Positions 8,082 through 61,247 of a DNA stretch of 64,000 bases are shown here, in pieces (position 1 is the stretch's first letter; each line of letters begins with the position of its first letter). This DNA is from Blastocatellia bacterium. Lineage in GTDB: Bacteria > Acidobacteriota > Blastocatellia > Chloracidobacteriales > Chloracidobacteriaceae. The notes under the pieces are model-generated. The model did no database searches and was not told the origin of the DNA. It saw nothing but the letters and a program-made list of their open reading frames with translations. The translations under genes and the position numbers were made by a program. The DNA is taken from assembly GCA_019695185.1 (NCBI GenBank), contig JAIBAN010000002.1, positions 62,001-126,000 on the forward strand. The letters run 5' to 3'.

Positions 8082-9229
8082 TGAATTTACTCCACCTCAG
8101 TTCCGGGAAAACCTTTGGCGGTGGCGAACGGCACGTCCTGGAACTGGTGACGGCTCTGGCTGCGCGAGGACACTCCTTGCACGTGGCTGTCCGTCCGCAA
8201 AGCGCGCTCCGGGAACAACTTGCCGCCTTTCCGGAAATCCGGCTCCATGTGCTGGGAATGCGCAATGCCCTGGATGTGGTTTCCATGACCAAACTGGCCC
8301 GACTCATCCAAAGCGAACGGATTGCGGTGGTGCATGCCCATTATGGCCGCGATTACACCCTGGCGGCTGGCGCAGTGCGGCTGGCGCGGAATCTTTTCAA
8401 AATGGAATGCCGACTGGTTTTGACCCGGCACCATTACCTGCCGCTTTCTTCACATCCACTCAATCGAACATGGCTCTCGGGCACGGATGCGGCCATTGCG
8501 GTTTCAGGCAGTGTCCGTGCGACCTTGTGCGCTTCACTGGGCTGGCCACCTGACCGGGTGCGGGTGATTCCCAACTGGGTCAACCCCGAGCCATTTCGCC
8601 ACCCGTTGGAAAAGCCAAACGCCCGCCAGTTTTTCAATTTGCCGCAGGAAGGCAAGCTGGTTGGGGTCATCAATCAACTGGCTCCGGCCAAAGGGCAACT
8701 TGAAGCGTTACAGGCAGTCAGCCACCTGGCGACCAGCTTCCCCAATCTCCATCTGGTGCTGGCCGGAACCGAACATGGCGGCACAACCTTTACGGAAGAA
8801 TTGAAAGCTGCCGCCCGCCGGATGAACCTTACGGAACGGATTCACTGGTTAGGGTTTGTCACCGAAGTGCCAAAACTGCTGGCAGCACTCGACATCGTGC
8901 TGATTCCATCCTGGAACGAAGCCTTTTCCCTGGGAGCGCTCGAAGCCCTGGCCGCTGGCGTACCCGTGATTGCGTCACAGGTTGGCGGACTGGCTGAAAT
9001 CCTGACCCATGAACAGACCGCCCTGCTTGTTCCACCCCAAAATGGAAAAGAGCTGGCCACGGCCCTGCACCGACTTTTGATTGATGAACAGTACTGTAAA
9101 CATCTTATCCAGTCTGGATTTTCACGAGTGGAAACTGAGTACACGCTGGAACGGGCAGTGGAAAGAGTGGAAAAACTGTATCAGGAAATCGAGGGTTCCG
9201 GGTTCAACAAATTGAGAATTGAGAATTGA
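8081..9229 (+). CDS. Glycosyltransferase, GT4 type
   Basis: 382 residues from ATG 8081 (MNLLHLSSGKTFGGGERH). The N-terminal Rossmann domain has the donor-loop signature GGGERHVLEL. The C-terminal domain has the GT4 nucleotide-sugar site: VIPSWNEAFSLGALEALAAGVPVIAS, with the EX7E motif, then GGLAEIL. GT4 enzymes transfer sugars with retention, commonly in lipopolysaccharide or exopolysaccharide assembly. No polysaccharide cluster surrounds it. The last residues KLRIEN and the TGA stop are encoded by three copies of the AATTGAG repeat, so the original C-terminus was probably slightly different. Confidence 0.9.
   Translation: MNLLHLSSGKTFGGGERHVLELVTALAARGHSLHVAVRPQSALREQLAAFPEIRLHVLGMRNALDVVSMTKLARLIQSERIAVVHAHYGRDYTLAAGAVRLARNLFKMECRLVLTRHHYLPLSSHPLNRTWLSGTDAAIAVSGSVRATLCASLGWPPDRVRVIPNWVNPEPFRHPLEKPNARQFFNLPQEGKLVGVINQLAPAKGQLEALQAVSHLATSFPNLHLVLAGTEHGGTTFTEELKAAARRMNLTERIHWLGFVTEVPKLLAALDIVLIPSWNEAFSLGALEALAAGVPVIASQVGGLAEILTHEQTALLVPPQNGKELATALHRLLIDEQYCKHLIQSGFSRVETEYTLERAVERVEKLYQEIEGSGFNKLRIEN
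9210..9229 (+). repeat. AATTGAG heptamer array forming a gene end
   Basis: Two full AATTGAG units plus AATTGA (9210-9229). The TGA at 9227-9229 is the stop codon of the glycosyltransferase. No inverted partner is seen before the next gene. Confidence 0.85.
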
Positions 9230-9243
9230 AAAGACCGAAACCC

Positions 9244-9250
9244 AAAGGAG
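9244..9250 (+). promoter_or_regulatory. Ribosome binding site deciding a TTG start
   Basis: AAAGGAG stands seven bases before the TTG at 9258 and fixes the start of the acetyltransferase there rather than at in-frame codons inside the repeat at 9219. Confidence 0.65.
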
Positions 9251-9257
9251 TATCCCC

Positions 9258-9815
9258 TTGCCTTCGAAATCTGAAAAACTGCTTCCACAACAACAATATT
9301 TCCTTCACAGTCAACGACTTGGATGGCGACAATGGCAGGTCTCGGACCTTGCGCTGGCACTCGGATTGTGGGGTGACCAGGAGGTTACGGCCCTCATCGG
9401 CGGGCCATTTTCGGCTGCACAGGTACAGGCTAGGCTTGCACAGGAAATCAAAAATCAACAGGAATTCGGCCTGCAATATTGGCCCATCTTTCATGTGACG
9501 ACCGGGGACCATATTGGTTGTTGCGGGTTACGGCCCTATCGAACCGATGAACTGGTGTACGAGTTGGGTTTTCATCTCAGGAAAGCTCATTGGGGTCAAG
9601 GTTACGCGCAGGAAGCAGCCCAAATTGTCATTTCCTATGCGTTTGAAGCATTGGGGGCAGCCGCCCTGTTTGCCGGCCATAATCCGGCCAACGGGTCTTC
9701 CCGCAGGTTGCTGGAAAAGCTTGGATTCACCTACACCCATCACGAATTCTATGCCCCAACCGGCCTGGACCATCCCTGTTATCTGCTGCGCAAACCAACT
9801 GAGCCCCTCGCCTGA
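9258..9815 (+). CDS. GNAT family N-acetyltransferase
   Basis: 185 residues from TTG 9258. The fold is that of RimJ/RimL-type acetyltransferases: residues about 20-60 give the first strand and helices, then IGCCGLRPY, then ELGFHLRKAHWGQGYAQEAAQ with the acetyl-CoA pyrophosphate loop (Q/R-x-x-G-x-G/A equivalent WGQGYA). It ends with FAGHNPANGSSRRLLEKLGF, the N-x-x-S-x-x-L-x-x-x-x-G-F motif of this subfamily. The substrate cannot be read from sequence. It follows the glycosyltransferase by 28 bp on the same strand and is probably cotranscribed. Confidence 0.88.
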   Translation: MPSKSEKLLPQQQYFLHSQRLGWRQWQVSDLALALGLWGDQEVTALIGGPFSAAQVQARLAQEIKNQQEFGLQYWPIFHVTTGDHIGCCGLRPYRTDELVYELGFHLRKAHWGQGYAQEAAQIVISYAFEALGAAALFAGHNPANGSSRRLLEKLGFTYTHHEFYAPTGLDHPCYLLRKPTEPLA

Positions 9816-9869
9816 CGCTTGACGAAACGATTCCTGCACGGTCATCCTGCCACTACACAAAAACACTTT

Positions 9870-9886: not shown

Positions 9887-12800
9887 ATGTCGAAGCCTCT
9901 TTTTGTTCGGCCACTGACAACTGAAGAACGCCATCAACTGGAATTGTTTCTGCGGGCGGAAAGCTCTGACCTGCGGCAGCGGGCGGAAAGCATTTTAGGG
10001 TCGGCAGCCGGAAAAATCGCGCCGGACATGGCCCACCGAATGGGTATTTCCGCCGAGAATGTCAAACGCTGGATCCGCCGTTTCAATGCAGAAGGATTGG
10101 ATGGCATCGCCGAACGCAAACGAGGACCGGAGCCCCGTTTTACCTCCAGGGAAATCGCGGCCATTCGGGGTCTGGCTTCCCAGTCCCCACGCGCCCTGGG
10201 ATATGATTTTGACACATGGTCACCGCAACGGCTGGCTGACGCCGCCCGTGAACGTGGTCTGGTGCCGCACATTTCCCATGTGACGGTGCGCAAATTTCTG
10301 AATCAGGGTTCAGGGTTCAGGGTTCAGGGTTCAGGGTTTGAAATTCCAGGCTTCCCAGACTCCCCAGACTCCCCAGACTCCCCAGACTCTCAAGACTCGC
10401 CAAACTCGGTTATTCGACGCATTGCATTGCTGGAAGCCAAATTAACGGCGGTGGGACTCTCCCCGGAAGATGAAGCGGCCATTCGGTGTGCCCTCAGCGA
10501 AGCGCACGAGAATATCGGGCATTATCCGGAATCGCTGGAAGTGGTGGCACTGTACGATTCAGCCGACACCCATTTGCCGCCCGCCCCCTATTGGCAGGCC
10601 CAAATCAAACTGCGGCTGGGTTGGGGGCACGCCTGGCAAGGGAATCAGCCGCGCGCCCTGGCCCGGTTGAACGAAGCCTTACGATTGTTTTTGGAGCAGC
10701 ATTACCCGGATGGCGTCAGCGCGGCCCATTACGCCATCGGACGGACCTATGCTGAAATCAACGAATTCAAAATCGGGCGGGACCGTATCTGGCAGGGGCT
10801 CAGAATTGTTCAGGCTGAGACGGAAACCAAAGAATCCAGACGCTGGAATCCTGAACACCCTGAGGGCACGGCAGCCCAGTGGCGCTCAACCCTCATGGCC
10901 CGCATGCACCTCAGTTTGGGGGTGATTGATTACTGCGAAGGAAATTTCGAGGCGGCCAAGAAAAGCTACGTGCGGGCGCTTGAACTGGCTCAATCAACCG
11001 CTCAGGACCTGAACCTGCAAGGGCTGGTTGCCATGAATCTGGCCCTCATCCATGACCAAGTGGGCGAACGCCGCGATGCCAAACGCTATTACGAACAGGC
11101 CATCGAGGATTTTACCCTGGGCGGCCACGAAGGGTTTCTGGCCCGCTGCCACAACAACCTGGGCGAAAGCCTGATGCACCACGGTTTGTGGCAGCAGGCA
11201 GCCGAACATCTGGAACGTGCCCTGCAATTGGCGGAACGGCATCAGGTTCGTGAAAATGAAGCCCTGACCCTGATTACCCTGGCCGAACTCCGTCTGTTGC
11301 AGGGCCAGCAACTCGTCGCCGAACGTCACTTGGCGCGTGCGATTGAACTTCTGGTGGACGGCGACAAATGGGCCGAAGCCTATGCCCAACGGGTCTTGGG
11401 GAAAGTCTATCTGGGCCTGGGGCGGGATGCCGAAGGGTTGGCCAAGTTACAACTGGCGCTTCAAATGACCTCCGATATTGGCGACCAGCATGGCATGTGC
11501 CTGTCCTATCTGGAGCTTTCCGACTATGACCTGACCCATGGGAATCTGGAACAGGCGGAATCCTCGCTGGCACTGGCGCGCGAACTGCTGGAAAACAGTT
11601 CCGGGTTTTATGCCACCGGCGTCACCCAACGGTTGACCGGGAAACTGGAAGCCGCCCGCAACCGGGCTGCCGAAGCCGAGCAGCATTTACTGCAAAGCAT
11701 CTCGATTTTCATGGCCAATGACGACCAGTATGAAGTCGGGGTCAGCCGGTTTGAGGTTGGTCGGCTCCTGCTTGATGTGCAGGACTATGCCCAGGCTCAA
11801 ACCCAACTCCAACAGGCGGAAGAACTGTTTACCCAACTGGGGGCGGAAACAGCACTCGCCAAAGTGCGCGAGTTACGCCAGAAAACGGCTTCCTTTTCCG
11901 GCATGATGCAGACCAAGGCGGTTGCGCCGCCGCCTTCGGAGGCCCTGCTTTTGCAACGCCTGATTGAAGCCTGCACCGCCCGCGAATTGCTCTTGCAGGA
12001 ACTGGCTGCCATTTTGCAGGAAAATTTTGCCGCCCAATCGGTTGTTATCTGGGAGGCGGACGAACATACGGCACTGCGGGTGCTGCTGGCCCATGTCCAT
12101 CCGCATGATGACGCCTATCATCTGGCGGCACGGGGTGAAGACCTGCTCCTGCACAACAAACGGCTGGCCGACAGCCGGGTTTTTGACGAACAGGCCGCTC
12201 CGGAATGGGCCCGGATTCTGTTTGAGCGGGACCATCACCAAATCGGACTGTTTGTCCGTTGCGAACCGGCTGGAATGAAACTGCCCTTCAAAGGTCTGGC
12301 CCCGTTGCTCAAACAAATCCACCTGGGGCTGGAAATCGCCACCCTGCGGACAGCCCAGGCCAACGCCGCCGCCACACCGGTTTCAGCCAAAACACAACGG
12401 CCTTCCTCCCTCATTCCGGGCTTTCTTTTTTGCAGCCCGGCCATGTGCGAAGTGGTGGACCATATCCGGAAAATCCGAACCTCTGACGTAACCGTGCTGA
12501 TTACCGGTGAATCAGGCACCGGCAAGGAACTGATTGCGCGGGCAATTCACGTTGGTTCAGCCCGGCGGGATGCGGTTTTCCTGCCGTTTAACTGTACCGC
12601 CACCCCCCGTGATTTGATTGAAAGCCAGCTTTTTGGCCACCGGCGCGGCGCTTTTACCGGCGCGGTCAGCAACTATCCGGGAATTATTCGGGCAGCCGGA
12701 GGCGGCACCCTGTTTCTGGACGAAATTGGCGATTTGACCCTGGAAACCCAGCCCAAGCTGATGCGCTTTTTGCAGGAGGGCGAAATTCAGCCGCTGGGCG

Positions 12801-13477
12801 AAACCAAACCGCTCAAAATTGACGTGCGGGTGCTGGCCGCCACCAATGTGGATTTGGAACGGGCCGTCAATGAAGGCCGTTTCCGCGAAGACCTCTATCA
12901 CCGGCTGAATATCATTCGGATTCACGTTCCGCCGCTCAGGGAACGCCGCGAAGACATCCCCTTGCTCGTCAATCATTACCTGGAACATTTCGCGCAACGT
13001 GACGGCAAGCGTGACCTGCGATTGGCTCCGGAAGCATTGGATTTGATGACGGCCTACCATTGGACCGGCAACGTCCGCCAACTGCGGAACGAAATCGAGC
13101 GATTGGTGGCCTTTGCCACCCCCGGCACGGTTCTGGGCGTCCGCGACCTGTCACCCGATATTGCCCGTCCACGTACCAGCGCATTGCCCGGCAATGGATA
13201 CAAAGTGCCTGAGTCCGGCAAATCTCCCGAATTTCAGACGGAATCAACCCTTCCTCCAATATCGAATGGAACCCAGACAGCCTCACTGACCTACCCGGTC
13301 CGAGCCTCTTTGCGCGAAGCCGTGGAACGATTGGAACTCCAGATGATTTCCCAGGTACTGGAACGAACCGGCTCCAATATCTCGCAGGCAGCCCGCGAAC
13401 TCGGCTTGTCACGGCGGGGATTGCGGTTGAAGATGGAACAGCTTGGAATTTTCAAAGGACTGAGGACTGAGGACTGA
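9887..13477 (+). CDS. Sigma-54-dependent activator with transposase-like HTH and TPR domains
   Basis: 1196 residues. Residues 1-140 resemble the N-terminal HTH pair of IS630-type transposases (AHRMGISAENVKRWIRRFNAEGLDGIAERKRG, then a second helical unit ending SHVTVRKFL). Residues 140-175 are a linker encoded by repeats. Residues 175-690 carry about a dozen TPR units, and 690-830 look GAF-like. Residues 850-1080 are the sigma-54 AAA+ domain with Walker A GESGTGKE (about 873), GAFTGA (about 919) and Walker B FLDEIGDL (about 943). A Fis-type HTH occupies 1140-1190. GAFTGA shows it can remodel the sigma-54 holoenzyme. There is no receiver Asp, so TPR or GAF ligands probably control it. The stop codon lies inside a GGACTGA repeat. 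Confidence 0.88.
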   Translation: MSKPLFVRPLTTEERHQLELFLRAESSDLRQRAESILGSAAGKIAPDMAHRMGISAENVKRWIRRFNAEGLDGIAERKRGPEPRFTSREIAAIRGLASQSPRALGYDFDTWSPQRLADAARERGLVPHISHVTVRKFLNQGSGFRVQGSGFEIPGFPDSPDSPDSPDSQDSPNSVIRRIALLEAKLTAVGLSPEDEAAIRCALSEAHENIGHYPESLEVVALYDSADTHLPPAPYWQAQIKLRLGWGHAWQGNQPRALARLNEALRLFLEQHYPDGVSAAHYAIGRTYAEINEFKIGRDRIWQGLRIVQAETETKESRRWNPEHPEGTAAQWRSTLMARMHLSLGVIDYCEGNFEAAKKSYVRALELAQSTAQDLNLQGLVAMNLALIHDQVGERRDAKRYYEQAIEDFTLGGHEGFLARCHNNLGESLMHHGLWQQAAEHLERALQLAERHQVRENEALTLITLAELRLLQGQQLVAERHLARAIELLVDGDKWAEAYAQRVLGKVYLGLGRDAEGLAKLQLALQMTSDIGDQHGMCLSYLELSDYDLTHGNLEQAESSLALARELLENSSGFYATGVTQRLTGKLEAARNRAAEAEQHLLQSISIFMANDDQYEVGVSRFEVGRLLLDVQDYAQAQTQLQQAEELFTQLGAETALAKVRELRQKTASFSGMMQTKAVAPPPSEALLLQRLIEACTARELLLQELAAILQENFAAQSVVIWEADEHTALRVLLAHVHPHDDAYHLAARGEDLLLHNKRLADSRVFDEQAAPEWARILFERDHHQIGLFVRCEPAGMKLPFKGLAPLLKQIHLGLEIATLRTAQANAAATPVSAKTQRPSSLIPGFLFCSPAMCEVVDHIRKIRTSDVTVLITGESGTGKELIARAIHVGSARRDAVFLPFNCTATPRDLIESQLFGHRRGAFTGAVSNYPGIIRAAGGGTLFLDEIGDLTLETQPKLMRFLQEGEIQPLGETKPLKIDVRVLAATNVDLERAVNEGRFREDLYHRLNIIRIHVPPLRERREDIPLLVNHYLEHFAQRDGKRDLRLAPEALDLMTAYHWTGNVRQLRNEIERLVAFATPGTVLGVRDLSPDIARPRTSALPGNGYKVPESGKSPEFQTESTLPPISNGTQTASLTYPVRASLREAVERLELQMISQVLERTGSNISQAARELGLSRRGLRLKMEQLGIFKGLRTED
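10303..10337 (+). repeat. Five TCAGGGT (GGTTCAG-family) heptamers inside a coding region
   Basis: Five perfect 7-bp units inside the sigma-54 activator gene. They encode the linker SGFRVQGSGF. The same heptamer occurs between genes at 23662-23703 and 27465-27603. Confidence 0.9.
10352..10405 (+). repeat. Six 9-bp units inside a coding region
   Basis: Units close to TCCCCAGAC repeat six times and encode a Ser-Pro-Asp run. A related 9-bp repeat (GACTCCCAA) lies between genes at 56713-56757. Confidence 0.85.
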
Positions 13478-13575
13478 GGACTGAGCAAACAACTGTGCTT
13501 TGGCTTGTTTCATTTACAAAGTCTGACATACCGATTGGTGCTTTTACTCAGTCCTCAGTCCTCAGTCCTCAGTCC
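13457..13575. repeat. Inverted GGACTGA arrays (4 + 4 units)
   Basis: Four perfect GGACTGA units at 13457-13484 and four perfect TCAGTCC units at 13548-13575, separated by 63 bp. Together they can form a stem of at least 28 bp. The third unit supplies the TGA stop of the sigma-54 activator. The right array ends two bases before the GGAG ribosome site of the next gene. Confidence 0.92.
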
Positions 13576-13586
13576 TTGGAGTTAAT

Positions 13587-23654: not shown

Positions 23655-23661
23655 GATTTCG

Positions 23662-23809
23662 GGTTCAGGGTTCAGCGTTCAGGGTTCAGCGTTCAGGGTT
23701 CAGGGTTTTCGAATAACTGAAAAATTGAAGGATTGAACGGGGAGATAATTGTCCATTGTCCATTGTCCATATATCCATTCAAAAGACCCTGAACCCTGGA
23801 CCCTGTTCC
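23662..23809. repeat. Composite repeat element, left copy (before dppB, after fic)
   Basis: Six GGTTCAG/CGTTCAG heptamers (23662-23703), a core starting GGTTTTCGAATA (23704-23715), three TTGTCCA heptamers (23749-23769), and three inverted CTGAACC-like heptamers (23789-23809) that touch the Fic stop codon at 23810. The core and internal order recur at 24650-24740. Confidence 0.88.
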
Positions 23810-24626: not shown

Positions 24627-24740
24627 CGTTCAGGGTTTCGGGGTTTCGGGGTTTTCGAATACCAGAAAATTTGAAATCTTGCATGGGACTTTGATTGTTC
24701 ATTGTCTATTGTCCATTCAGAAGCCCCTGAAACCCTAGCC
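24627..24740. repeat. Composite repeat element, right copy (before fic)
   Basis: Degenerate CGTTCAG/GGTTTCG units (24627-24657), the same 12-bp core GGTTTTCGAATA (24650-24661), three TTGTTCA/TTGTCTA/TTGTCCA heptamers (24695-24715), an ATTCAGAAG segment and a CCCTGAAACCC right arm. It is a diverged direct copy of 23662-23809. Confidence 0.82.
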
Positions 24741-26693: not shown

Positions 26694-27464
26694 ATGGGTT
26701 ATGTGAAGTATGAAGCGATTCGGTACGAAGTTGCGGATGCAGTTGCAACTCTGACCATGAATCGCCCGGACAAACGGAACGCCTTAAATGACACGACCTT
26801 GCATGAATTGCTTGATGCGCTGGAGGCAGCCCATGCGGATTCAACCGTCCGGGTGGTGGTGCTGGCCGGTGCTGGCAAGGATTTTTGTGCCGGAGCAGAT
26901 CTTTCCGCCCTTGAAAAAATCGCCAGTGCCGGCACGCTTGAAAATCTGGCCGATGTCCAGAGTTTTGTGAATCTGTTCATTGCCATGCGCCAGCTTCCCA
27001 AGCCGATTGTGGCCAAAGTCCAGGGCCGGGCACTGGCCGGAGGCTGCGGACTGGCGACCGCCTGCGACCTGATTGTGAGCACGCAGAGCGCCCAATTCGG
27101 CTATCCGGAAGTCAAAATCGGTTTTATTCCGGCGATGGTGATGGCGATTTTGCGGCGGAACATCAGCGAAAAACGGGCTTTTGAGTGGATGGCCATCGGT
27201 GACCCAATTTCGGCTGCCGAAGCCCAGGGTTACGGCTTGGTCAACCAGGTTTTTGCCGACGAGGGGTTTGAAACCAAAGTGGGAGAATATGTTTCGACCC
27301 TGGCTTCGCGCAGTGCCTCGGCACTTCATCTGATGAAAAAACTGCTTTACCACATGGACGGCATGTCCTTTGAAACAGCGCTTCGTTCAGGCGCTGACCT
27401 CAATGTGCTGTGCCGGACGACGGCTGACTGTCAGGCTGGGGTGGCAAAATTCTTAAAGAAATAG
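26694..27464 (+). CDS. Enoyl-CoA hydratase/isomerase family protein, LiuC-like
   Basis: 256 residues, full length for a crotonase. The oxyanion-hole segments are KDFCAGADLSAL and RALAGGCGLATACDL. The catalytic Glu corresponding to E164 of rat crotonase is present in YPEVKIGFIPA, while the position of E144 is Gly (GGCGL). This single-Glu pattern matches methylglutaconyl-CoA hydratase (LiuC, leucine breakdown) and some isomerases more than classical enoyl-CoA hydratase. AAAGGGATG precedes the ATG. No other leucine-degradation gene is nearby, so the pathway is not certain. The TAG stop runs directly into a GGTTCAG array. Confidence 0.88.
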   Translation: MGYVKYEAIRYEVADAVATLTMNRPDKRNALNDTTLHELLDALEAAHADSTVRVVVLAGAGKDFCAGADLSALEKIASAGTLENLADVQSFVNLFIAMRQLPKPIVAKVQGRALAGGCGLATACDLIVSTQSAQFGYPEVKIGFIPAMVMAILRRNISEKRAFEWMAIGDPISAAEAQGYGLVNQVFADEGFETKVGEYVSTLASRSASALHLMKKLLYHMDGMSFETALRSGADLNVLCRTTADCQAGVAKFLKK

Positions 27465-27603
27465 GGTTCAGGGTTCAGGATCTTTTTAATTGAGAATTGA
27501 GAATTGAGAGTTGAGAGTTGAAAGCCAATTCACAATATCGATCCTTCTGATAGGCGAAACCCCTGAACCCTAACCCCTGAACCCTGAACCCTGAACCCTG
27601 AAC
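27465..27603. repeat. Nested GGTTCAG and AATTGAG repeat element
   Basis: Two GGTTCAG units (27465-27478) start immediately after the TAG stop. Then come five AATTGAG/AGTTGAG units (27488-27522), followed by a right arm of CCTGAAC units (27562-27603, five units and one 6-bp variant) inverted relative to the first array. Confidence 0.9.
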
Positions 27604-27686: not shown

Positions 27687-28763
27687 ATGCAGTGTCCGCA
27701 ATGTGGTATTCCCAATCGAGATGAGGCGAAATTCTGCACCAAGTGTGGCTTTGTGTTGTCGTCGGCCAAATCGTTGAAGGAGCCGGCGGTGGTCGTCCCC
27801 AAACCGAGAGAAGAGGAAGACCCGACGTTTCCGCCCGAACGACCGCAGGCAGCCGTCATTACGCTCACTGACCCGGTGCCAAGTCCAGCGCCCACCCCCT
27901 ATCTGGAAGCTGTTTTCACGGTTGGATTACGTGCCGGCGAGCGGGTCACCGTAGTTGATTTTCCTGCCACCATTGGACGTGACCCTAACAGCACGTTACC
28001 CATGGCGCTGAATGACACACTGGCCTCCACCCGCCATGCCCAGTTGAATTTTAATGGGCGGAACTTTTCACTCCGGGATGTTGGCAGCACCAATGGAACC
28101 TATTATCAGGGCCGGCGCATCAAGGAAATGATGATTTCCCACGGGGATACCATTGAATTTGGGATTGGCGGCCCGCAAATCCGGTTTGAGTTTCCGGCAG
28201 CCGTTCAGACCCCGCGAGTGGTTCGGGCTGACCCTCCGGCACCGCCTGCTGCCAACCCGGCACGGGAAGTGGAACCAGCCGCTGCCAAACAGGATAAAAT
28301 CCCGGCCTGGGCTAAAAACCCGCCGCCGCCGCCGATTCTGGCGGTTGCCACGCCGGACCCGCTCAATGCTCCGCCCGCCATCAGTCCGGGCATGTATGAC
28401 CAGCCCAACGGCTCGGCAGTACCGCCAACCCTGAATCAGCCTCCTGGTCAGGCAGCTTCGTTTCGTCCGAATCCCCCAGTATTCCCCAGTCCGCCCGTTC
28501 CCGCAGGCATGCCGCTGGCGGCAGCCCCACCCGCCATGCCCGCCCCCCCTGAAACGGCAACTCCGCCTCAGTCCAAAGCCCTGGCTTTGGTGAAAATCGC
28601 TGCCGGATTTCTTTTTCTGGTGGCCGGTATCGGGGTGTCGGTTCTCTTTCGCCAAATGCAGATTCTGGTTGGCTTTATGATTTGCGTCATGTTAATCGGA
28701 TTGGCGCTCATGATTTGGGGAGCGATGCAGTTTGTGCTTGGCCCCACCGCGAAAAAAAATTGA
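27687..28763 (+). CDS. Zinc-ribbon, FHA-domain membrane protein
   Basis: 358 residues from ATG 27687. Residues 1-22 are a zinc ribbon (CPQCGIPNRDEAKFCTKCG). Residues about 75-150 form an FHA domain with TIGRDPNS, STRHAQL and DVGSTNGTYYQG, the residues that read phosphothreonine. A Pro/Ala-rich linker of about 120 residues follows, then two membrane helices (LVKIAAGFLFLVAGIGVSVLF and LVGFMICVMLIGLALMIWG). FHA proteins of this sort bind substrates of Ser/Thr kinases, and two such kinases lie elsewhere in the window. An upstream start at 27612 would add 25 unconvincing residues. The last codons and TGA stop come from an AATTGAG repeat. Confidence 0.85.
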   Translation: MQCPQCGIPNRDEAKFCTKCGFVLSSAKSLKEPAVVVPKPREEEDPTFPPERPQAAVITLTDPVPSPAPTPYLEAVFTVGLRAGERVTVVDFPATIGRDPNSTLPMALNDTLASTRHAQLNFNGRNFSLRDVGSTNGTYYQGRRIKEMMISHGDTIEFGIGGPQIRFEFPAAVQTPRVVRADPPAPPAANPAREVEPAAAKQDKIPAWAKNPPPPPILAVATPDPLNAPPAISPGMYDQPNGSAVPPTLNQPPGQAASFRPNPPVFPSPPVPAGMPLAAAPPAMPAPPETATPPQSKALALVKIAAGFLFLVAGIGVSVLFRQMQILVGFMICVMLIGLALMIWGAMQFVLGPTAKKN

Positions 28764-28894
28764 GAATTGAGAATTGAGAATTGAAGGGCTTCCTTTCTTT
28801 TGCTTTTTGCCAATATTTTGCAAAACAAGTTTCAATTCCCTGTGCCCAATTTGAAATGTCTCAATTCTCAATTCTCAATTCTCGATTCTCAATT
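28758..28894. repeat. Inverted AATTGAG arrays between two plus-strand genes
   Basis: Three full AATTGAG units plus a partial (28758-28785) supply the TGA stop at 28761-28763. Five inverted CTCAATT units, one with a C-to-G change (28860-28894), end 10 bases before the GTG start of the next gene. The 74-bp spacer has no similarity to the spacers of other such pairs. Confidence 0.92.
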
Positions 28895-28904
28895 CAAAAA
28901 ACCA

Positions 28905-39570: not shown

Positions 39571-39707
39571 AATTGAGAATTGAGAATTGAGAATTGAGAA
39601 TTCTCCTCTGTTGGATTGAACTGGTTTCGGGTCAGAGCCGCCAGTTTTCAGCTTTTTGCCGGTAACTTCATTCTCAATTCTCAATTCTCAATTCTCAATT
39701 CTCAATT
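39571..39707. repeat. Inverted AATTGAG arrays between yhbH and an alpha/beta hydrolase gene
   Basis: Four AATTGAG units (39571-39598, extended by AATT) abut the yhbH ribosome site. Five inverted CTCAATT units (39673-39707) share one base with the stop codon (39707-39709) of the upstream hydrolase gene. The spacer is 74 bp. Confidence 0.93.
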
Positions 39708-40747
39708 CATTCATTGCTGTCAACGGCTACGGTTTTCTTCCGGCCTGCCGACTTGGTGCGCCGACTGCCTGACCCGGTTGGTTTGGTCCGGCGGCAAAAA
39801 TCAATCATGATTTCAGCAGTTGTTTCAGGCTGCTCCTCCTGCGGCAGATGCCCGCATTCGGGAATCACGATAAATTCCGAGTTCGGCACGGAAAGATGCA
39901 GCCGGGCCCCCTGGGTGAGTGGAATCACCGGGTCAAACTCGCCCCACAAAACCAGTGTCGGCACATGCACGTCGCCCAGTTCTGACTCAATCCAGTTCAA
40001 GTCCCATTGCCGCGAGGCCGCCAGAATCGCCTGCTGGCAATTGGATGACCGGAGCGGGCGATGATAGGCCCGGACCCGCTCCTCCGTAACCGCCGACTTG
40101 TCATGAAACATGCCGCGCAACCCATTTCGGATAAAAGCCTTGGACCCCAACAGCAGCGGCGCTCCGACTTCGCCCAGCCCCCAAGTGCGGGCCAACAACA
40201 ACGAAAGGCCATAAGGTTTTTGGGTAATCGGAACGTCGTTAAAAGCGGCGTCCACCAAAATCAGCCCCCGGACCCGCTGAGGATGCATCAGGGCACAGGC
40301 CAGCGACGTACCACCACCATAAGAGTTACCGCAAAAGACCGCCCGCTCCACGCCCAGGTGGTCCAGCAATCCGATGATTAAATGAGCCTGGTCCTGAATG
40401 TGATACCGGTTGTCAGCCGGCTTTTCGGAAAACCCAAACCCTTTCAGGTCCGGAGCAATCACATGATAACCGGCCTCCACCAGCGGTGCGAAACAGTCTT
40501 TCCAGGTGTAGTTTGAAGAAGCGAACCCGTGCAGCAGCACAATGGTTTCATTGTTGCGCGCACCGCGCTCCTGAAAATGCAACCGGACGCCATCCACCAC
40601 GGCAAAATTGCTGGTGGTCGCCTGGTGCATTTCACCAGCATAGTCAATCCATCGAATATCGCGTGGGCGCGAAGCGTAGCGCCACGCAATGCCACCTGCC
40701 AGAGCCATTCCCGAAGCGGCAATGAGTGCCTTTTGTTTGTTGTTCAC
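39707..40747 (-). CDS. Alpha/beta hydrolase
   Basis: 346 residues from GTG 40747, preceded by AGAGGGA six bases away. Residues 8-23 form a membrane helix or signal anchor (ALIAASGMALAGGIAW). The alpha/beta hydrolase core shows the oxyanion HGFASSNYTWKD, the nucleophile elbow GNSYGGG with Ser, the acid in LWGEFDPVIP and the His in PECGHLPQEEQPE, so the Ser-Asp-His triad is complete. Closest general relatives are haloperoxidase/epoxide-hydrolase-like or lipase-like enzymes; the substrate is unknown. A basic tail (residues about 320-346, rich in Arg, Lys and Thr) is unusual. Confidence 0.9.
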   Translation of the reverse strand: MNNKQKALIAASGMALAGGIAWRYASRPRDIRWIDYAGEMHQATTSNFAVVDGVRLHFQERGARNNETIVLLHGFASSNYTWKDCFAPLVEAGYHVIAPDLKGFGFSEKPADNRYHIQDQAHLIIGLLDHLGVERAVFCGNSYGGGTSLACALMHPQRVRGLILVDAAFNDVPITQKPYGLSLLLARTWGLGEVGAPLLLGSKAFIRNGLRGMFHDKSAVTEERVRAYHRPLRSSNCQQAILAASRQWDLNWIESELGDVHVPTLVLWGEFDPVIPLTQGARLHLSVPNSEFIVIPECGHLPQEEQPETTAEIMIDFCRRTKPTGSGSRRTKSAGRKKTVAVDSNE

Positions 40748-40917: not shown

Positions 40918-41056
40918 ACTGAAAGGAAAAAGGAAAAAGGAAAGAAGCAAAAGACGAAAGACGCGCGGAAAATCAAAAATAATGCAGCCAAAATTCCCAT
41001 TGGCCCGCCGTACATTGCTTCCGTCTTTATTTCCTTTTTCCTTTTTCCTTTTTCCT
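40918..41056. repeat. Inverted GGAAAAA arrays
   Basis: GGAAAAA units at 40925-40945 (two perfect, one variant, preceded by a partial) face three CCTTTTT units at 41033-41053. The right array ends seven bases after the TAA of the ABC ATPase gene. The rest of 40748-41063 has no coding frame. Confidence 0.8.
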
Positions 41057-41063
41057 TGAATCG

Positions 41064-41799: not shown

Positions 41800-42015
41800 A
41801 ATTGAGAATTGAGAATTGAGAATTGAGAATTGCATAAATCATCGCTGGTTTTTGAATGAATTACAAAAATGTAAGTCGTAAAAGCAAGCGGCAAAACCTT
41901 GTATTTTTCTTGTAACCAGTTGAAAAAGAATAAGATGAATTATGTAACAACATCCTTCCAGCAATTCTCAATTCTCAATTCTCAATTCTCAATTCTCAAT
42001 TCTCAATTCTCAATT
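41800..42015. repeat. Inverted AATTGAG arrays between an ABC ATPase gene and an ECF sigma gene
   Basis: Four and a half AATTGAG units (41800-41832) lie eight bases upstream of the ATPase ATG. Seven perfect inverted CTCAATT units (41967-42015) contain the stop codon of the sigma factor at 42010-42012. Spacer 134 bp, AT-rich, no coding frame. Confidence 0.93.
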
Positions 42016-42585
42016 CCCCGCTCCCTTTTGCAATTCCCGAAACAGCCACATTTTGGCAATCCGCCAGTCACGCATGACGGTTGCCACGGAAAGGCCCAAG
42101 GCTTCGGCGGTTTCCTCAACCGACAGCCCGCCAAAAAACCGGAGTTCGACAATCCGGCTTTGCCGCTCGTCAAGCGTGGCCAGGGTTTTCAAGGCATCGT
42201 CCAAAAGAATCAGGTCAATATCCTTGTCTTCCGCCAGATTGAGTGCAGCATCCAACGTGAGGCGGACGGCTTCTCCACCCCGTTTATCGGCGGCCCGGCT
42301 ACGGGCATAATCCACCAGAATCCGGCGCATCATCTGGGCTGCCACACCCAGAAAATGCGCCCGGTTTTTCCATTCGACGTGATGCTGGTCAATTAACCGC
42401 AAATAGGCTTCATTAACCAAAGCCGTTGGTTGCAACGTGTGGCCTCGGCGCTCGCGGCTTAAATAAATCCGGGCGGAGCGATGCAAATCATCATACAAGG
42501 CTGCCATCAATTGTGCCTGTGCCTGTTCGTCGCCAGCGTTCCACTTGAGGAGCAGTTCCGTCACATTGGGGTTGGATTCGGGCAT
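42010..42585 (-). CDS. ECF-family RNA polymerase sigma factor
   Basis: 191 residues. Sigma region 2 runs from about residue 10 to 90 (LMAALYDDLHRSARIYLSRE..TLQPTALVNEAYLRLI), with LGVAAQMMRRILVDYARSRAADKRGG typical of the acidobacterial/planctomycete subfamily TIGR02999. Region 4 is LATLDERQSRIVELRFFGGLSVEETAEALGLSVATVMRDWRIAKMWL, a complete HTH. Members of this subfamily are often encoded near Ser/Thr kinases, as here. No anti-sigma gene is adjacent. It is divergent from the NHL-repeat gene. The TGA stop is supplied by the AATTGAG array. Confidence 0.93.
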   Translation of the reverse strand: MPESNPNVTELLLKWNAGDEQAQAQLMAALYDDLHRSARIYLSRERRGHTLQPTALVNEAYLRLIDQHHVEWKNRAHFLGVAAQMMRRILVDYARSRAADKRGGEAVRLTLDAALNLAEDKDIDLILLDDALKTLATLDERQSRIVELRFFGGLSVEETAEALGLSVATVMRDWRIAKMWLFRELQKGAGN

Positions 42586-45800: not shown

Positions 45801-46499
45801 GGAACCGGAGCCCTAGGCACAACCAACGGAGACGGAGACGGAGGCCCGGCCCTGGCCGCCAGATTCGGTTATCTGGGAAGATTGGGCCTGGCCCGCAACA
45901 ACCTGCTTGTCCTGGATGTAATTCACGCCAACATTCGCTCTATCAATCTTTCCACCGGAATCATCACTCGTTTGGCCGGCACCGGACTTAACGGCTACAG
46001 CGGTGACGGTGGAAACGCCCTTGAAGCCAGTCTGAACCGCCCCACAGCAGTGGCCACGGACCGGGCCGGGAACATTTTCGTGGCCGATACGCAAAACAAC
46101 CTGATTCGAAAAATCAACCCACAAACGGGGGTCATTACCACTGTAGCCGGAAAACCGCTGGGGGCTTCTCCCAACCCAATCCGATTCAGCGGTGACGGCG
46201 GCCCGGCCACAGAAGCCAATCTCTTTGCTCCTGTTGGAGTTACGGTGGATGGCCAAGGCCATCTTTTTATCGCCGACAGTGGCAACAATCGGATTCGCCG
46301 GGTGGACGCCCAAACTGGCATCATTACCACCGTGGCCGGAAATGGTATCCCGAATCGAGCTGATGACCGGACTCAGCCGGCTCTTCAAACACCCTTTCTC
46401 TCCTTGGGTACGTTGGCGATTGACGCAACTGGAAACCTCTATGTCACTGATGGACCCCGTGTCCGGGTGATTAAAAAAATTGGAGAACCGCTCCGGTAG
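42831..46499 (+). CDS. Secreted NHL-repeat protein with Ig-like and IPT domains
   Basis: 1222 residues from ATG 42831. A signal peptide ends at GGYALAQ. Residues about 45-120 form a bacterial Ig-like (Big2) domain. NHL beta-propeller repeats (pattern GDGGPATEANLxxPxGVAVDxxGNLFIADTxNHRIRRVDxxTGIITTVAG) fill about 130-440 and 590-1215. An IPT/TIG domain (SLNQDLARLEGGTKVRIAGKNFAP) separates the blocks. Such proteins are common in Acidobacteriota and probably bind ligands or polymers at the cell surface. No catalytic residues or sorting signal are seen. AGGTGG stands close before the ATG. The stop codon TAG overlaps the first base of a GAGTTTT array. Confidence 0.9.
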   Translation: MIQLNRFSLVFFFLILWSGGYALAQTTVETPPLQVQKPKEALSIKQRNPVVNEGNQIGLTAIDAAGKTVSNVTWASGSPDIAQVDPKTGTVTGVRQGFATITTTNGTDSSSVFVVVARIQKGNGDKIPGDSKSDPNGRLYISSPIQNVILQTGNVFSAPAQIFAGQRNTKGRVDGEAKSALFAGPTAIAIDNSVQGGLYVADTLNHCIRRIGFNQQVEKFLGDWNPGQPQFNEVGFATFGQTRFSSPRGIATDGKGNLFLADTDNHAVYYIQIPEQRVVLLAGKPGERGTQDGVGRSARFFHPAGLSLSTDGRVLAVADEANHQVRLLELTYTAEGIPQSRVTTISAAASNTATLNSDSFPGPLKANLFFNPQSVSFDTAGNVQVVDQRGVYVITQPLTKPQVVNLAQPGVSFRQAVSVSMQGTRSIILDAAEPNAAESVKIVTVGAPEIASLNQDLARLEGGTKVRIAGKNFAPETLLFLGDTPITKFEVVSATQIHFTVPSQRYSGNRTLTVQTRGGIAQIPFRIIPEPLADLKKGEVTTFVGSQVSYVGDGGMATADVVGLTPHHVAVDALGNLFIADTENHRIRRVDAQSGSITTVAGNGAPGFSGDNGLALGAGLFRPAGLAFDSQGRLFVADFGNNRVRRIDLQTGLISTVAGTGDPTPTNSEGLSATSTNIASPVSVALDRNGNLFIGTLGNHAVLRVDAQTNRVSRLLGSGDYFPNPLALTVDASGNLYIADSAISQVLRWDAKTETLEPFAGSGIAGNGGDSGLATAAQLLAPAGLAIDGAGNLLIADSGNHRIRRVDTKTGIIAGVAGRSGRPGFSGDGESAILATFNTPLGIAFDGNGNLYIADSENYRVRQIRADSKTISTIAGSGEEQVLGKDGLATSLSVENFGSLAVDSNGNLFLTDVYQNRVFRVENKTGTFRLLAGNGQSGFAGDGSPASQALLHGPNGIQLDEANQKLFIGDSGNNRIRSIDLKTGIITTIAGTGALGTTNGDGDGGPALAARFGYLGRLGLARNNLLVLDVIHANIRSINLSTGIITRLAGTGLNGYSGDGGNALEASLNRPTAVATDRAGNIFVADTQNNLIRKINPQTGVITTVAGKPLGASPNPIRFSGDGGPATEANLFAPVGVTVDGQGHLFIADSGNNRIRRVDAQTGIITTVAGNGIPNRADDRTQPALQTPFLSLGTLAIDATGNLYVTDGPRVRVIKKIGEPLR

Positions 46500-46582
46500 A
46501 GTTTTGAGTTTTGAGTTTTGAGTTTTAACATCTTGAGCTTAAAAGGGATTTCCACTCAAATCTCAAAACTTAAACCTCAAAA
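46499..46582. repeat. Inverted GAGTTTT arrays (4 + 4 units)
   Basis: Four perfect GAGTTTT units (46499-46526) begin at the last base of the TAG stop. Four CTCAAAA-type units, two of them variants (46555-46582), end 13 bases before the ATG of the next gene. Spacer 28 bp. Confidence 0.9.
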
Positions 46583-46595
46583 CTTCCTCCTCAAC

Positions 46596-50139: not shown

Positions 50140-50949
50140 TCATTTGCGATTTGCCATTTGCGATTTGCGAGGGTGAAACCTTCTTCGCAGATGAGAGAGG
50201 CCTCTCTCAGACAATCCTGCGAGCCAAACCACCATTCCCAAGGCGAACCCGAATGCCCCGCAGAGGGAACAAAAAATCCAGACAAATAAAGCAAACCAAT
50301 CAAGATATGACCTTGCTGAGGCAAGCTGACCGTGCCACCCATCACCAACCAGACCAATTATTGTCAAACCCATTCCCAGCAAAAGCCCAATGCCAAGACC
50401 ACCGACCAAACCTTGAAACGGATTGACTGTTCGATAAGGCCCTCCGCTGGCTGGTCCCCATAACGCTGTCGGGGAGCAAAGGAAATCAGGTGTGGAAACG
50501 CTACGAGGTTTTTTCCTGTACTGGTGCAAAGCCTTTTCACGCCATCGTTCCCAGATGCGTTCCAACCACATCATCGTTCCATACAACACTGTGACCGGAG
50601 TAAACAAAATGAAGAAAAATACGGTCAGCCCCCAAAACAGTCCCAGTACGTCTGAAATGGAAACGTCTCTGAGGTGTACTTGCAAAAGGAAAAATCCTCC
50701 TATCCCCAGGGCTGCACCCGGAGCCCAGCAGATTCCTGCCAGTAAACCTTCAATTGGATTTTGAGGAGAAGCCAAGACTGTCAGCCAATGCCGGGAAGTC
50801 CTGGAAAGCACACGATTCTGCTCAGGGGAAATCCTGGTTTGGGGATATTTCTGACAGCGGGAACAGCGATTGGCAACCGGGTTGAAACAATCCCGCTGAT
50901 GGCATATCTCGCACCGGGTGGGCAACGTCTGATTTCGAATCACCAGCAT
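50140..50949 (-). CDS. Zinc-ribbon membrane protein of unknown function
   Basis: 269 residues. Residues 12-33 have two CxxC pairs (RCEICHQRDC and RCSRCQ), a zinc-ribbon pattern. Four or five hydrophobic segments follow (LLAGICWAPGAALGIGGFFLL, VLGLFWGLTVFFFILFTPVTVLYG, LVGGLGIGLLLGMGLTIIGLVG, FALFVWIFCSLCGAFGFALGMVVWL). The family is not recognised. The C-terminal nine residues and the TGA stop are encoded by the CATTTGC/GATTTGC array, so the native end was probably replaced. It is convergent with the PEGA gene, with two bases between the stop codons. Confidence 0.72.
   Translation of the reverse strand: MLVIRNQTLPTRCEICHQRDCFNPVANRCSRCQKYPQTRISPEQNRVLSRTSRHWLTVLASPQNPIEGLLAGICWAPGAALGIGGFFLLQVHLRDVSISDVLGLFWGLTVFFFILFTPVTVLYGTMMWLERIWERWREKALHQYRKKPRSVSTPDFLCSPTALWGPASGGPYRTVNPFQGLVGGLGIGLLLGMGLTIIGLVGDGWHGQLASARSYLDWFALFVWIFCSLCGAFGFALGMVVWLAGLSERGLSHLRRRFHPRKSQMANRK
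50141..50168. repeat. CATTTGC/GATTTGC array covering two gene ends
   Basis: Four alternating 7-bp units. The minus-strand reading gives the C-terminus and TGA stop of the zinc-ribbon gene. The plus-strand PEGA gene stops three bases to the left. Confidence 0.9.
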
Positions 50950-59458: not shown

Positions 59459-60682
59459 ATGAAAAAGTCAGATTCCCACTGGTTTTCCGTCTCAAGGTTA
59501 GGCGTCGGGCTGGTATTTTTAATTTACTGGATGAGTATACCTCCGGTACGACCTTCCTCCGCAGCACCCATTCCTGGTTTCCGGGAAAAAACAGTTCTCC
59601 CTTATAGTGCTGTGGCAGCTCCTGAATGGGAAGCTTTGTTTAACCGAAGTACAGGTTGGACCGGGGCCGACGGAATTTATTCAATTCCTTTTTCTGGCGA
59701 TGAACGCCCTGGCAGTGGGACAAAAACCAATACGTTTTGGATTTTCAACGATACGTTCATTGGCGAAGTTGATTCCAGCGGGCAACGATTGCCGGGCAGT
59801 ACCCTGGTCAATAATACAACCGCTTGGCAACGGGGAGCCAAGCCGGTAGGAGCCTCAATTCAGTTTCTCTGGCGGAAAAATACCGCCGGTGCCCCCCTCC
59901 CGCTTGTCACGCCGAACACTTCCCCACAGCATTGGTTCTGGCCGAATGATGGCGTGTTTTTCAAAGGCCGGTTGTTTCTTTACGCTTTACGGATGCGTCC
60001 TGGAGGAAGTGGGGCGTTCGCCTTTGAGATGGACGGAATTTCCTTACTGCAAAGCCGGGCCGAAGATGTGACCCTACTCAAGTCCTATCAACAATCGAAC
60101 ACCCCCCTGTATGTCCCCGCCAATGGGAATTTGGGTGAAATCGCCTTTGGGATGGCAGTTATGCCCAACACCAACGAGGCTGGTGCGCCAAATCCGGACG
60201 GGTTTCTGTATGTGTATGGGCTTCGGAATGATGCTTTCAACAAAAAATTACTAGTTGCACGAGTTCCGATGGGTTCAATCAGTGATTTTTCAGCCTATCG
60301 GTTCTGGAATGGAACCCAATGGGTCGGGCAGGTGGCCAATGCCGTACCGGTTTCCACCCGACTCTCCTCTGAATTCAGTGTCAGTCCTTTGCCGGACGGA
60401 AGGTTTCTCTTGGTCTTTCAACTTGATACCCTGAGCAATACCGTCGCTGTCCGCTATGGAACTTCGCCGGTCGGTCCCTGGGGTGAAGTCATTCCGATTT
60501 GGACTTGTTCGGAAGCAACTTTGACACCCAACACCCTGACCTATAATGCCAAAGGCCACCCCCATCTGTCAGAACCCGGTGAAATGTTGATTAGTTATAA
60601 TGTCAACACAACTTCATTTCCCGAACACTTTACCCATGCTTCCATTTACCATCCCAGATTCATTCGCCTGCGCCTCAACTGA
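59459..60682 (+). CDS. Secreted DUF4185-like protein
   Basis: 407 residues from ATG 59459 (MKKSDSHWFSVSRLG), with GAGG before it. A signal peptide or anchor runs to about residue 37. The body resembles five-bladed propeller glycosidase-like families (DUF4185/DUF5005): FWIFNDTFIGEV..LVNNTTAWQ, HWFWPNDGVFFKGRLFLYALRM, and DGFLYVYG near the middle. It ends with GEMLISYNVNTTSF typical of such folds. Hydrolysis of a polysaccharide is possible but not supported by clear catalytic residues. No sugar-utilisation genes surround it. Confidence 0.75.
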   Translation: MKKSDSHWFSVSRLGVGLVFLIYWMSIPPVRPSSAAPIPGFREKTVLPYSAVAAPEWEALFNRSTGWTGADGIYSIPFSGDERPGSGTKTNTFWIFNDTFIGEVDSSGQRLPGSTLVNNTTAWQRGAKPVGASIQFLWRKNTAGAPLPLVTPNTSPQHWFWPNDGVFFKGRLFLYALRMRPGGSGAFAFEMDGISLLQSRAEDVTLLKSYQQSNTPLYVPANGNLGEIAFGMAVMPNTNEAGAPNPDGFLYVYGLRNDAFNKKLLVARVPMGSISDFSAYRFWNGTQWVGQVANAVPVSTRLSSEFSVSPLPDGRFLLVFQLDTLSNTVAVRYGTSPVGPWGEVIPIWTCSEATLTPNTLTYNAKGHPHLSEPGEMLISYNVNTTSFPEHFTHASIYHPRFIRLRLN

Positions 60683-60821
60683 CCGGGAAACGGGACTGCG
60701 AGCTGTGCGGACCGAGTCTGTTGTCAATGCCGACGGTGAACCGCCACGTCACACAGTCTGACAGGCAAAACCCAACCAACAGCATATTTTGTGGGTTGCG
60801 CAAAAGGAAATGACCAGGGAA

Positions 60822-61106
60822 CTACCGTTTGACCGGGGTGGCCTGGGTAATTGTCTCAACAGTCTGGCGGAAACTGAAAATCTCCATCACCCCCATGACA
60901 ATATTGACGATTCCCAAACCGGTGACGGCACCGCGCAGGTATCCGCTTTGCATCAAATGCAGAATCAAATCAGAACGAAAGCGGCTGGCCAGATAGAAAA
61001 GAAAGAAATTGTCGCTCCAATAAGCGGACCAGGGAAGGAAAATCAGCAGGGCACCGATTTCAAAACAAATCAGGATATAAAAAATAACAGTTAATTTTGC
61101 AGACAT
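60822..61106 (-). CDS. Small membrane protein of unknown function
   Basis: 94 residues from ATG 61106. Two hydrophobic helices (about 5-26 and 56-74) are separated by a polar loop with FRSDLILHLMQSGYLRG. The family is not recognised. AAAGGG lies close to the ATG. A TTG at 61118 would add four residues, but its codon overlaps the AATTGAG array. The preceding 139 bp after the DUF4185-like gene hold no other frame. Confidence 0.6.
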   Translation of the reverse strand: MSAKLTVIFYILICFEIGALLIFLPWSAYWSDNFFLFYLASRFRSDLILHLMQSGYLRGAVTGLGIVNIVMGVMEIFSFRQTVETITQATPVKR

Positions 61107-61116
61107 CCCTTTTTCC

Positions 61117-61247
61117 AATTGAGAATTGAGAATTGAGAATTGAGAATGAACAACATTTGGTGACCGGAACAGATAAAATTGGATTGCGCAGGATACACAT
61201 TTGGGTGAGGTCCTGAATTCTCAATTCTCAATTCTCAATTCTCAATT
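61117..61247. repeat. Inverted AATTGAG arrays between a TPR gene and a small membrane-protein gene
   Basis: Four AATTGAG units (61117-61144) start 11 bases upstream of the ATG at 61106. Four inverted CTCAATT units (61220-61247) end seven bases after the TAG stop of the TPR gene. Spacer 75 bp. Confidence 0.93.

What the first reader, a model, noticed from the sequence alone, without database searches (positions are those of the whole stretch)
9210..61247. Several unrelated heptanucleotide repeat families share one intergenic architecture
At least seven tandem-repeat families have a 7-bp unit: AATTGAG, GGTTCAG, GGACTGA, GAGTTTT, CATTTGC/GATTTGC, TTGTCCA and GGAAAAA. They sit almost only between genes. 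In the clearest cases they form inverted pairs around 28-134 bp spacers whose sequences are unrelated to each other. One array touches the stop codon of the upstream gene and the inverse array ends near the start of the next gene. Cyanobacterial STRRs are heptamers too, but a constant unit length with different sequences and paired inverted placement suggests a common copying or slippage mechanism, perhaps guided by the hairpin, rather than common descent of the units.
Basis: partly seen in the sequence, partly recalled or inferred. Interest (0 to 1): 0.85.

Follow-up and report, generated by a model that had tools for sequence, protein, structure and literature searches.

The report
Heptamer-armed hairpin elements after stop codons
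This bacterium's gene gaps hold hundreds of small inverted-repeat elements whose two arms are runs of a 7-letter DNA word, always in the same polarity and usually starting right after a stop codon; they look like tiny mobile elements whose 7-letter word drifts over time, which goes beyond the one-word precedent known in Xanthomonas.

Summary
In 1.08 Mb of the host genome, perfect arrays of three or more copies number 271 for 7-bp units and at most 24 for any other unit length (2-30 bp). I found 116 inverted pairs: 114 with the G-rich arm left, spacers of median 70 bp, arms usually starting within a few bp of a stop codon. Reversed-polarity pairs are absent genome-wide in the three families searched. 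A second genus of the same family has the same architecture with mostly different heptamers.

GGGTTCA elements carry a homologous 77-bp interior at 41 genomic places (10 at 99-100% identity), so they disperse. The one AATTGAG spacer searched genome-wide has a 75%-identical second copy, also between AATTGAG arms. Homologous copies show AATGGAC, AATTGAC and AATTGAG arrays at one position, with 7-bp length steps: units drift by substitution and slippage.

Best reading: non-autonomous, REPIN/MITE-like hairpin elements with heptamer-array arms. The enzyme is unknown; the Y1/RAYT genes inspected are not flanked by heptamers. Closest precedent: Xanthomonas GGGAATC pairs (PMC4692102). G-quadruplexes cannot explain GG-free units.

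The parts
9210..9229 (+). single AATTGAG array at the end of the ORF 7997-9229; no partner found
13456..13576 (.). GGACTGA element: arms 13456-13485 and 13547-13576, 61-bp loop; left arm overlaps the stop of ORF 9887-13477 (sigma-54 regulator), right arm ends 10 bp before the ATG at 13587
23661..23805 (.). GGGTTCA element: arms 23661-23707 and 23786-23805; its 77-78 bp loop is homologous to the dispersed interior and holds the ATTGTCC array 23748-23770; right arm ends 4 bp from the stop of the minus-strand ORF 23810-24616
24629..24717 (.). degenerate element of the same kind (8-bp TTCGGGGT array and an ATTGTCC array) before the start of ORF 23810-24616
27463..27603 (.). GGGTTCA element with an inner AATTGAG array (27488-27521); left arm overlaps the stop of ORF 26694-27464 (enoyl-CoA hydratase), right arm ends 8 bp before ORF 27612-28763
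28758..28895 (.). AATTGAG element, 74-bp loop, overlapping the stop of ORF 27612-28763
39570..39708 (.). AATTGAG element, 67-bp loop; right arm at the stop of minus-strand ORF 39707-40825
40922..41057 (.). GGAAAAA element, 86-bp loop between approximate arms; right arm ends 6 bp from the stop of minus-strand ORF 41064-41894
41800..42016 (.). AATTGAG element with a 129-bp loop (41833-41961) that has a 75%-identical second copy at G000:C203:61823-61928, also between AATTGAG arrays
46499..46585 (.). GAGTTTT element, degenerate right arm, 27-bp loop, directly after the stop of ORF 42684-46499
50142..50170 (+). single GATTTGC/CATTTGC array after the stop of ORF 48719-50137
61117..61247 (.). AATTGAG element, 68-bp loop; right arm ends 7 bp from the stop of minus-strand ORF 61255-63996
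10303..10338 (+). GGGTTCA array inside ORF 9887-13477 (not intergenic)

Best explanation
These are small (about 130 bp) non-autonomous mobile hairpin elements. Each has two inverted arms, commonly 4-5 tandem heptamers long, a G-rich 5' arm and a C-rich 3' arm on either strand, and a loop of about 70 bp that is free to vary. An unidentified enzyme acting in trans copies arms and loop together into gene junctions, usually just behind a stop codon. After insertion the arms gain and lose copies in 7-bp steps. Point changes in a unit spread through its array, so one heptamer family can turn into another while the paired, strand-polar layout is kept. Shown: the layout, polarity, position bias, dispersal of one family, and unit change between homologous copies. 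Inferred: the enzyme, that all families move the same way, and any effect on the host.
For: Polarity: 114 of 116 pairs have the G-rich arm left, the other 2 being CATTTGC, a variant of the left-arm unit GATTTGC; no family with two or more pairs is mixed. The reverse order has 0 matches genome-wide for AATTGAG, GGACTGA and GGGTTCA. A 77-bp GGGTTCA interior has 41 matches in G000, 6 at 100% and 4 at 99%. Of 40 copies examined, 29 have a plus-strand gene on the left and 27 of these begin -2 to +13 bp from its stop. Sister loops: three GGACTGA pairs and one AATTGAG loop whose second copy has AATTGAG arms. Arm phase preference. Unit series AATGGAC, AATTGAC, AATTGAG at one place in homologous copies, with 7-bp and 14-bp length differences. 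Possible empty sites: a 20-bp gap in G003 against an AATTGAG element in G000, and an 8-bp overlap in G000 against a 207-bp gap with arrays in G003. Same architecture, mostly other units, in G003.
Against: No enzyme is identified, and the Y1/RAYT genes inspected carry other repeats. No target-site duplication was established. The sampled AATTGAG loops resemble each other no more than shuffles. Elements leave almost no other sequence in convergent gaps (24 of 26 with 40 bp or less, against 13 of 69 array-free gaps that short), which plain insertion into ordinary gaps does not predict; gap length minus arms is close to that of array-free gaps (p 0.04), as if arms had been added to native gaps. 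The GGGTTCA family has only a weak preferred phase at the outer arm end (15 of 52). The second empty site rests on a best hit that may be a paralogue.
Confidence: 0.6

Rival explanations
1. One reading: heptamer arrays arise by polymerase slippage at the edges of native gene gaps, and the second arm is copied from the first through a hairpin (template switch), with no mobile unit.
For: AATTGAG loops in the sample are not alike; gap length minus arms is near that of array-free gaps; 7-bp length steps and spreading of unit variants are seen; several GGACTGA pairs have mirrored interruptions.
Against: Dispersed shared interior, sister loops with their arms, preferred arm phase, constant polarity. 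Random partners of the same family matched as well as true partners in two of three families.
Confidence: 0.2
2. The pairs are RNA structures at gene 3' ends (terminators, mRNA stabilisers or quadruplexes) kept by selection.
For: Arms start close to stop codons (median 3 bp for paired arms facing a stop) and pairs are rare in divergent gaps (6 of 111 against 83 of 525 tandem and 26 of 109 convergent).
Against: Changes that keep a G-U pair and changes that break pairing are equal, 21 and 21, in tandem gaps. T-runs follow 13 of 232 arm ends against 23 of 732 random gap positions. Loops fold no better than array-free gaps (p 0.78). No Rfam match in the window. AATTGAG, GAGTTTT and ATTTGCG contain no GG, so quadruplexes cannot be general.
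Confidence: 0.1
3. They are true REPINs moved by one of the genome's RAYT proteins.
For: Two inverted conserved arms around a short, diverse loop is the REPIN layout (PMC8049555, passages); PF01797 has 11 matches in G000 and 9 in G003.
Against: Five of the 11 G000 genes and three of the 9 G003 genes were inspected: none has a heptamer array of three or more copies within 450-500 bp, and several have other palindromic repeats instead. Arms are tandem arrays, not tagged palindromes.
Confidence: 0.09
4. Assembly artefact of a metagenome-derived genome.
For: The genome is a 222-contig draft and some elements lie at contig ends.
Against: The same layout occurs in a second assembly with mostly other units, and a like layout is published for Xanthomonas (PMC4692102).
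Confidence: 0.01

Closest known systems
GGGAATC heptamer repeats of Xanthomonas (Rehm et al. 2015, PMC4692102; sections 10, 13, 15 and passages seen)
   Same: Heptamer arrays, mostly four units, 89-93% intergenic, 70 and 75 close inverted pairs in two species, G-rich strand leading away from the nearest gene, often within 50 bp of or overlapping a stop codon, rare between divergent genes.
   Different: One G-rich unit per genome, read as a quadruplex; no shared interior and no link to mobile elements reported. Here many units, several without GG, share the layout, and one family has a dispersed interior.
REPINs of Pseudomonas and others (PMC8049555, passages)
   Same: Two inverted conserved arms, short diverse spacer, singlets alongside doublets, intergenic, non-autonomous.
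   Different: Arms here are heptamer arrays that change unit and length; no RAYT association in the genes inspected.
MITEs
   Same: Small, non-coding, terminal inverted repeats, dispersed copies of one interior (GGGTTCA family).
   Different: Most AATTGAG loops lack relatives in the sample; no target duplication or autonomous partner established.
P6b stem of the Nostoc trnL intron (PMC4476775, passages)
   Same: A stem built of heptamer repeats on both sides, with one heptamer class replacing another while the stem is kept.
   Different: One site inside an intron, not a dispersed element.
TAACTGA repeats of Beggiatoaceae (MacGregor 2015, PMC4679880; abstract and sections 3 and 10 seen)
   Same: Abundant intergenic heptamer arrays; indels mostly in 7-nt increments between two Cyanothece strains.
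   Different: Direct repeats (169 direct sets and one indirect in that genome), mostly just before start codons.

Membership tests
REPIN | two inverted conserved arms around a short, highly diverse spacer | tested here: met
   116 pairs, median spacer 70 bp; AATTGAG loops not alike in the sample
REPIN | arm is a REP: a short imperfect palindrome, often with a GTAG-type tag (recalled; PMC3733652 seen in listing only) | tested here: not met
   arms are tandem heptamer arrays
REPIN | RAYT gene flanked by the same element | tested here: not met
   5 of 11 PF01797 matches in G000 and 3 of 9 in G003 inspected; no array of 3 or more heptamers within 450-500 bp; the others were not inspected
MITE | terminal inverted repeats, small size, no coding capacity | tested here: met
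   arms of about 30 bp, about 130 bp in all
MITE | dispersed copies with a common interior | tested here: inconclusive
   met for GGGTTCA (41 matches); three sister pairs for GGACTGA; one second copy for the one AATTGAG loop searched genome-wide
MITE | target-site duplication | tested here: inconclusive
   a T before AGGGTTC and CCCTA on the right occur in part of the copies, but the stop codon TAG confounds this
MITE | autonomous partner with the same ends | not tested
   no search was made for it
Xanthomonas-type GGGAATC repeat pairs | heptamer arrays in close inverted pairs by stop codons | tested here: met
Xanthomonas-type GGGAATC repeat pairs | G-tract able to form a quadruplex | tested here: not met
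   AATTGAG, GAGTTTT and ATTTGCG hold no GG; GGGTTCA does
Cyanobacterial STRR | direct tandem heptamers in Cyanobacteria (recalled) | tested here: not met
   heptamers yes, but often in inverted pairs; the host is probably not a cyanobacterium: FMO gene in relatives G001 and G005, and G005 has 3.7 Mb in 2 contigs, which I read from recall as Chloracidobacteriaceae

The most novel reading that the evidence does not exclude
A separate class of bacterial mobile element, present in several phyla, whose recognition signal is the strand-polar heptad array pair itself (5' G-rich, 3' C-rich, about 70-nt loop) rather than a fixed sequence, so that the unit word can change without loss of mobility and each lineage ends up with its own vocabulary of heptamers.
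Probability: 0.28. Interest if true: 0.82.

Novelty: new variant of a known kind. Interest (0 to 1): 0.64.

Why it matters
The excess of heptamer repeats in bacteria has been put down to polymerase slippage or quadruplexes. Here the same layout is carried by GG-free heptamers and by mostly different heptamers in two genera, with a constant polarity that neither idea explains, and one family clearly disperses. If general, many 'simple sequence repeats' near bacterial stop codons are the arms of small mobile elements, and the question becomes which enzyme reads them and why they settle behind stop codons.

Tried and rejected
RNA selection: wobble test null, only 13 of 232 arm ends with a T-run, loops not special against array-free gaps, no Rfam match. 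With simple mononucleotide shuffles the loops had looked structured (mean z -1.14, 29 of 110 below -2); dinucleotide shuffles and the gap control removed that. RAYT link: not found in the genes inspected. Quadruplex: excluded as a general cause because some units lack GG.

Mirrored interruptions as proof of hairpin copying: dropped, because several interruptions share similar sequence across GGACTGA elements, and random partners did as well as true ones in two of three families. Insertion at TA: suggestive only; stop codons next to elements were TAA 43, TAG 26, TGA 33 against a background of 283, 91, 274, and the TAG excess is partly made by the array itself. Naming the host from genome contigs: one weak locus only.

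Limits: gene calls came from my own hexamer-based script (765 genes in 1.08 Mb), so start codons and some small genes are uncertain, and negative distances partly reflect wrong starts. Gaps were matched by best hits, not strict reciprocal ones, and its array flag also counts short 7-bp and 9-bp repeats; at least one of its 'G003 only' gaps holds no convincing array.
Full report
WHAT IS THERE. The window is G000:C86:62001-126000 of an 8.33-Mb draft in 222 contigs. I fetched further stretches of the same genome, 1.08 Mb or 13% with the window, and called genes with my own script. Perfect arrays of three or more copies: 271 for period 7, 24 for period 9, 10 for period 3, 8 for period 6, 3 or fewer for each other period in 2-30. 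In a 459-kb part the count was 124 for period 7 against 0 in an order-3 Markov copy. Period-7 arrays of at least 2.5 copies lie 292 between and 45 within called genes.

PAIRING AND POLARITY. With approximate arrays (433 in all) there are 116 inverted pairs within 250 bp and 201 arrays left unpaired. The left arm has more G than C in 114 of 116; the 2 others are CATTTGC, a variant of the left-arm unit GATTTGC. No family with two or more pairs is mixed. With strict perfect arrays, 75 of 75 inverted neighbours have the G-rich arm left. Genome-wide searches for the reverse order found 0 for AATTGAG, GGACTGA and GGGTTCA. The right order of AATTGAG gave 169 matches, overlapping registers counted; the right order was not searched genome-wide for the other two. 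Unpaired arrays mostly follow the same rule: in 130 of 159 intergenic ones the G side is nearer the flanking gene, and in 196 of 219 paired ones. Spacers have median 70 bp, with means of 71, 72 and 74 bp in the three main families. Arm ends prefer one phase in two families: 47 of 70 GGACTGA arms start AGGACTG and 46 of 70 end GACTGAG on the loop side; 51 of 64 AATTGAG arms start AATTGAG or GAATTGA. The GGGTTCA family prefers one phase at the inner end (28 of 52) but hardly at the outer end (15 of 52).

POSITION. Pairs lie in 83 of 525 tandem, 26 of 109 convergent and 6 of 111 divergent gaps. For 135 paired arms that face a stop codon the distance quartiles are -2, 3 and 7 bp. In convergent gaps 40 bp or less remains besides the element in 24 of 26, whereas only 13 of 69 array-free convergent gaps are that short. 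So elements tend to fill gaps from gene end to gene end. This fits insertion into very tight junctions, or arms added to native gaps, but not random insertion into ordinary gaps.

RELATIVES. Of 57 other genomes searched, 8 hold the AATTGAG triple, with at most 34 matches against 885 in G000. G003, another genus of the same family, has 86 perfect period-7 arrays of three or more copies in 511 kb (next: 14 of period 8) and 36 pairs: 34 with G-rich left arms, 2 ties, 0 reversed. Its pair units include AGTGGTT, GTAGTCA, GCGAGTA, GAATGAA and GGGTTCC, plus the shared GGGTTCA. Of 20 gaps with matching neighbours in both genomes, 10 carry arrays in both, 5 in G000 only, 2 in G003 only, 3 in neither (short arrays and 9-bp units are counted, and one of the 'G003 only' flags is not convincing). 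In the ten with both, the main units differ, in two of them only as GGG-variants. Two gaps look like empty sites: an AATTGAG element in G000 against a 20-bp gap in G003, and an 8-bp gene overlap in G000 against a 207-bp gap with arrays in G003. The second is a best hit and may be a paralogue; the reciprocal match pairs that junction with an 86-bp gap without heptamers.

DISPERSAL. The 77-bp interior of one GGGTTCA element has 41 matches in G000, 6 at 100% and 4 at 99% identity, 8 weak ones in G001 and none in G003. I examined the flanks of 40 of the 41. A plus-strand gene lies on the left in 29, and 27 of these start -2 to +13 bp from its stop. Among copies with both neighbours called, 21 lie ++, 4 --, 4 +- and 2 -+; in 13 of the 21 the next start is within 17 bp. 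Two copies at contig ends (L201, L207) show the same flanks and may be one locus. Of 116 loops, 27 have some match elsewhere in the sample, many of these to nested arrays. GGACTGA loops include 3 mutually similar pairs and one further match. The 129-bp AATTGAG loop of the window has a 75%-identical second copy, bracketed by an AATTGAG array and a degenerate inverse one. Otherwise the 32 AATTGAG loops of the sample resemble each other no more than shuffles (0 of 496 comparisons at score 34 or more, against 41 of 325 for GGGTTCA), so for most of that family movement is inferred.

UNIT CHANGE. An alignment of 18 GGGTTCA elements shows, at one place in the loop, AATGGAC repeats, AATGGAC/AATTGAC mixtures, AATTGAC, and one to four AATTGAG; two copies are longer by 7 and 14 bp. 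Arms of copies with identical loops differ in length and in unit variants.

FUNCTION TESTS. G-U-keeping and pair-breaking transitions in arms of tandem gaps are 21 and 21 (five families, strongly interrupted arms left out). T-runs next to the 3' arm occur at 13 of 232 ends against 23 of 732 random gap positions. Loops fold like array-free gaps (p 0.78), somewhat better than coding sequence (p 0.0009). No Rfam family reaches its threshold in the window. I therefore do not claim a terminator role.

ENZYME. PF01797 has 11 matches in G000 and 9 in G003. I inspected five of the 11 and three of the 9. None has a heptamer array of three or more copies within 450-500 bp, and several RAYT-like ones carry other palindromic repeats. 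The enzyme is open.

HOST. FMO (PF02327) is in G001 and G005 but not in G000, G003, G010 or G014, and G005 has 3.7 Mb in 2 contigs. From recall this fits Chloracidobacteriaceae; it is an inference.

LITERATURE. Seven searches were made in an open-access library. Rehm et al. 2015 (PMC4692102; sections 10, 13 and 15 read, passages) already describe inverted pairs of one heptamer near stop codons in Xanthomonas. Heptamer excess is older (Mrazek 2007, seen only through the introduction of PMC4679880). In these searches I found no account of many heptamers sharing this layout, of its polarity with GG-free units, or of a dispersed interior; most subscription papers are not covered.

VERDICT. It works like a REPIN or MITE but does not meet two of the REPIN features tested. 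I rate it a new variant of a known kind.

Noticed in passing
window 10303-10407: A 7-bp GGGTTCA array and an adjacent 9-bp CCAGACTCC array lie inside the long ORF 9887-13477 (sigma-54 regulator with TPR repeats), so one array pair of this kind appears to be tolerated inside a gene.
   Followed up: no
window 56713-56748; gap at G000:C17:36682-36870: A second unit length, 9 bp (such as GACTCCCAA), is also in excess (24 perfect arrays) and can form an outer inverted pair around an inner 7-bp pair.
   Followed up: partly
window 27463-27603; L188-L192: Elements nest: an AATTGAG array sits inside the loop of GGGTTCA elements.
   Followed up: yes
L138, L140, L153, L162 and G000:C11 near 85828: RAYT-like genes flanked by GC-rich palindromic repeats, probably their own REP families, distinct from the heptamer elements.
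   Followed up: partly
G001 and G005 versus G000 and G003: The FMO bacteriochlorophyll protein family is found in two members of the family and not in the two large-genome members.
   Followed up: no
G000:C11:5436-6950 and C2:41282-42632: Neighbouring gaps around one gene carry inverted copies of the same GGACTGA element (similar loops), as if copied locally.
   Followed up: no
window 30601-30696: A 27-bp tandem repeat of 3.6 copies (CGGCGGCGGTGGTCGCGGCGGATTCGG) in a region of ORFs.
   Followed up: no
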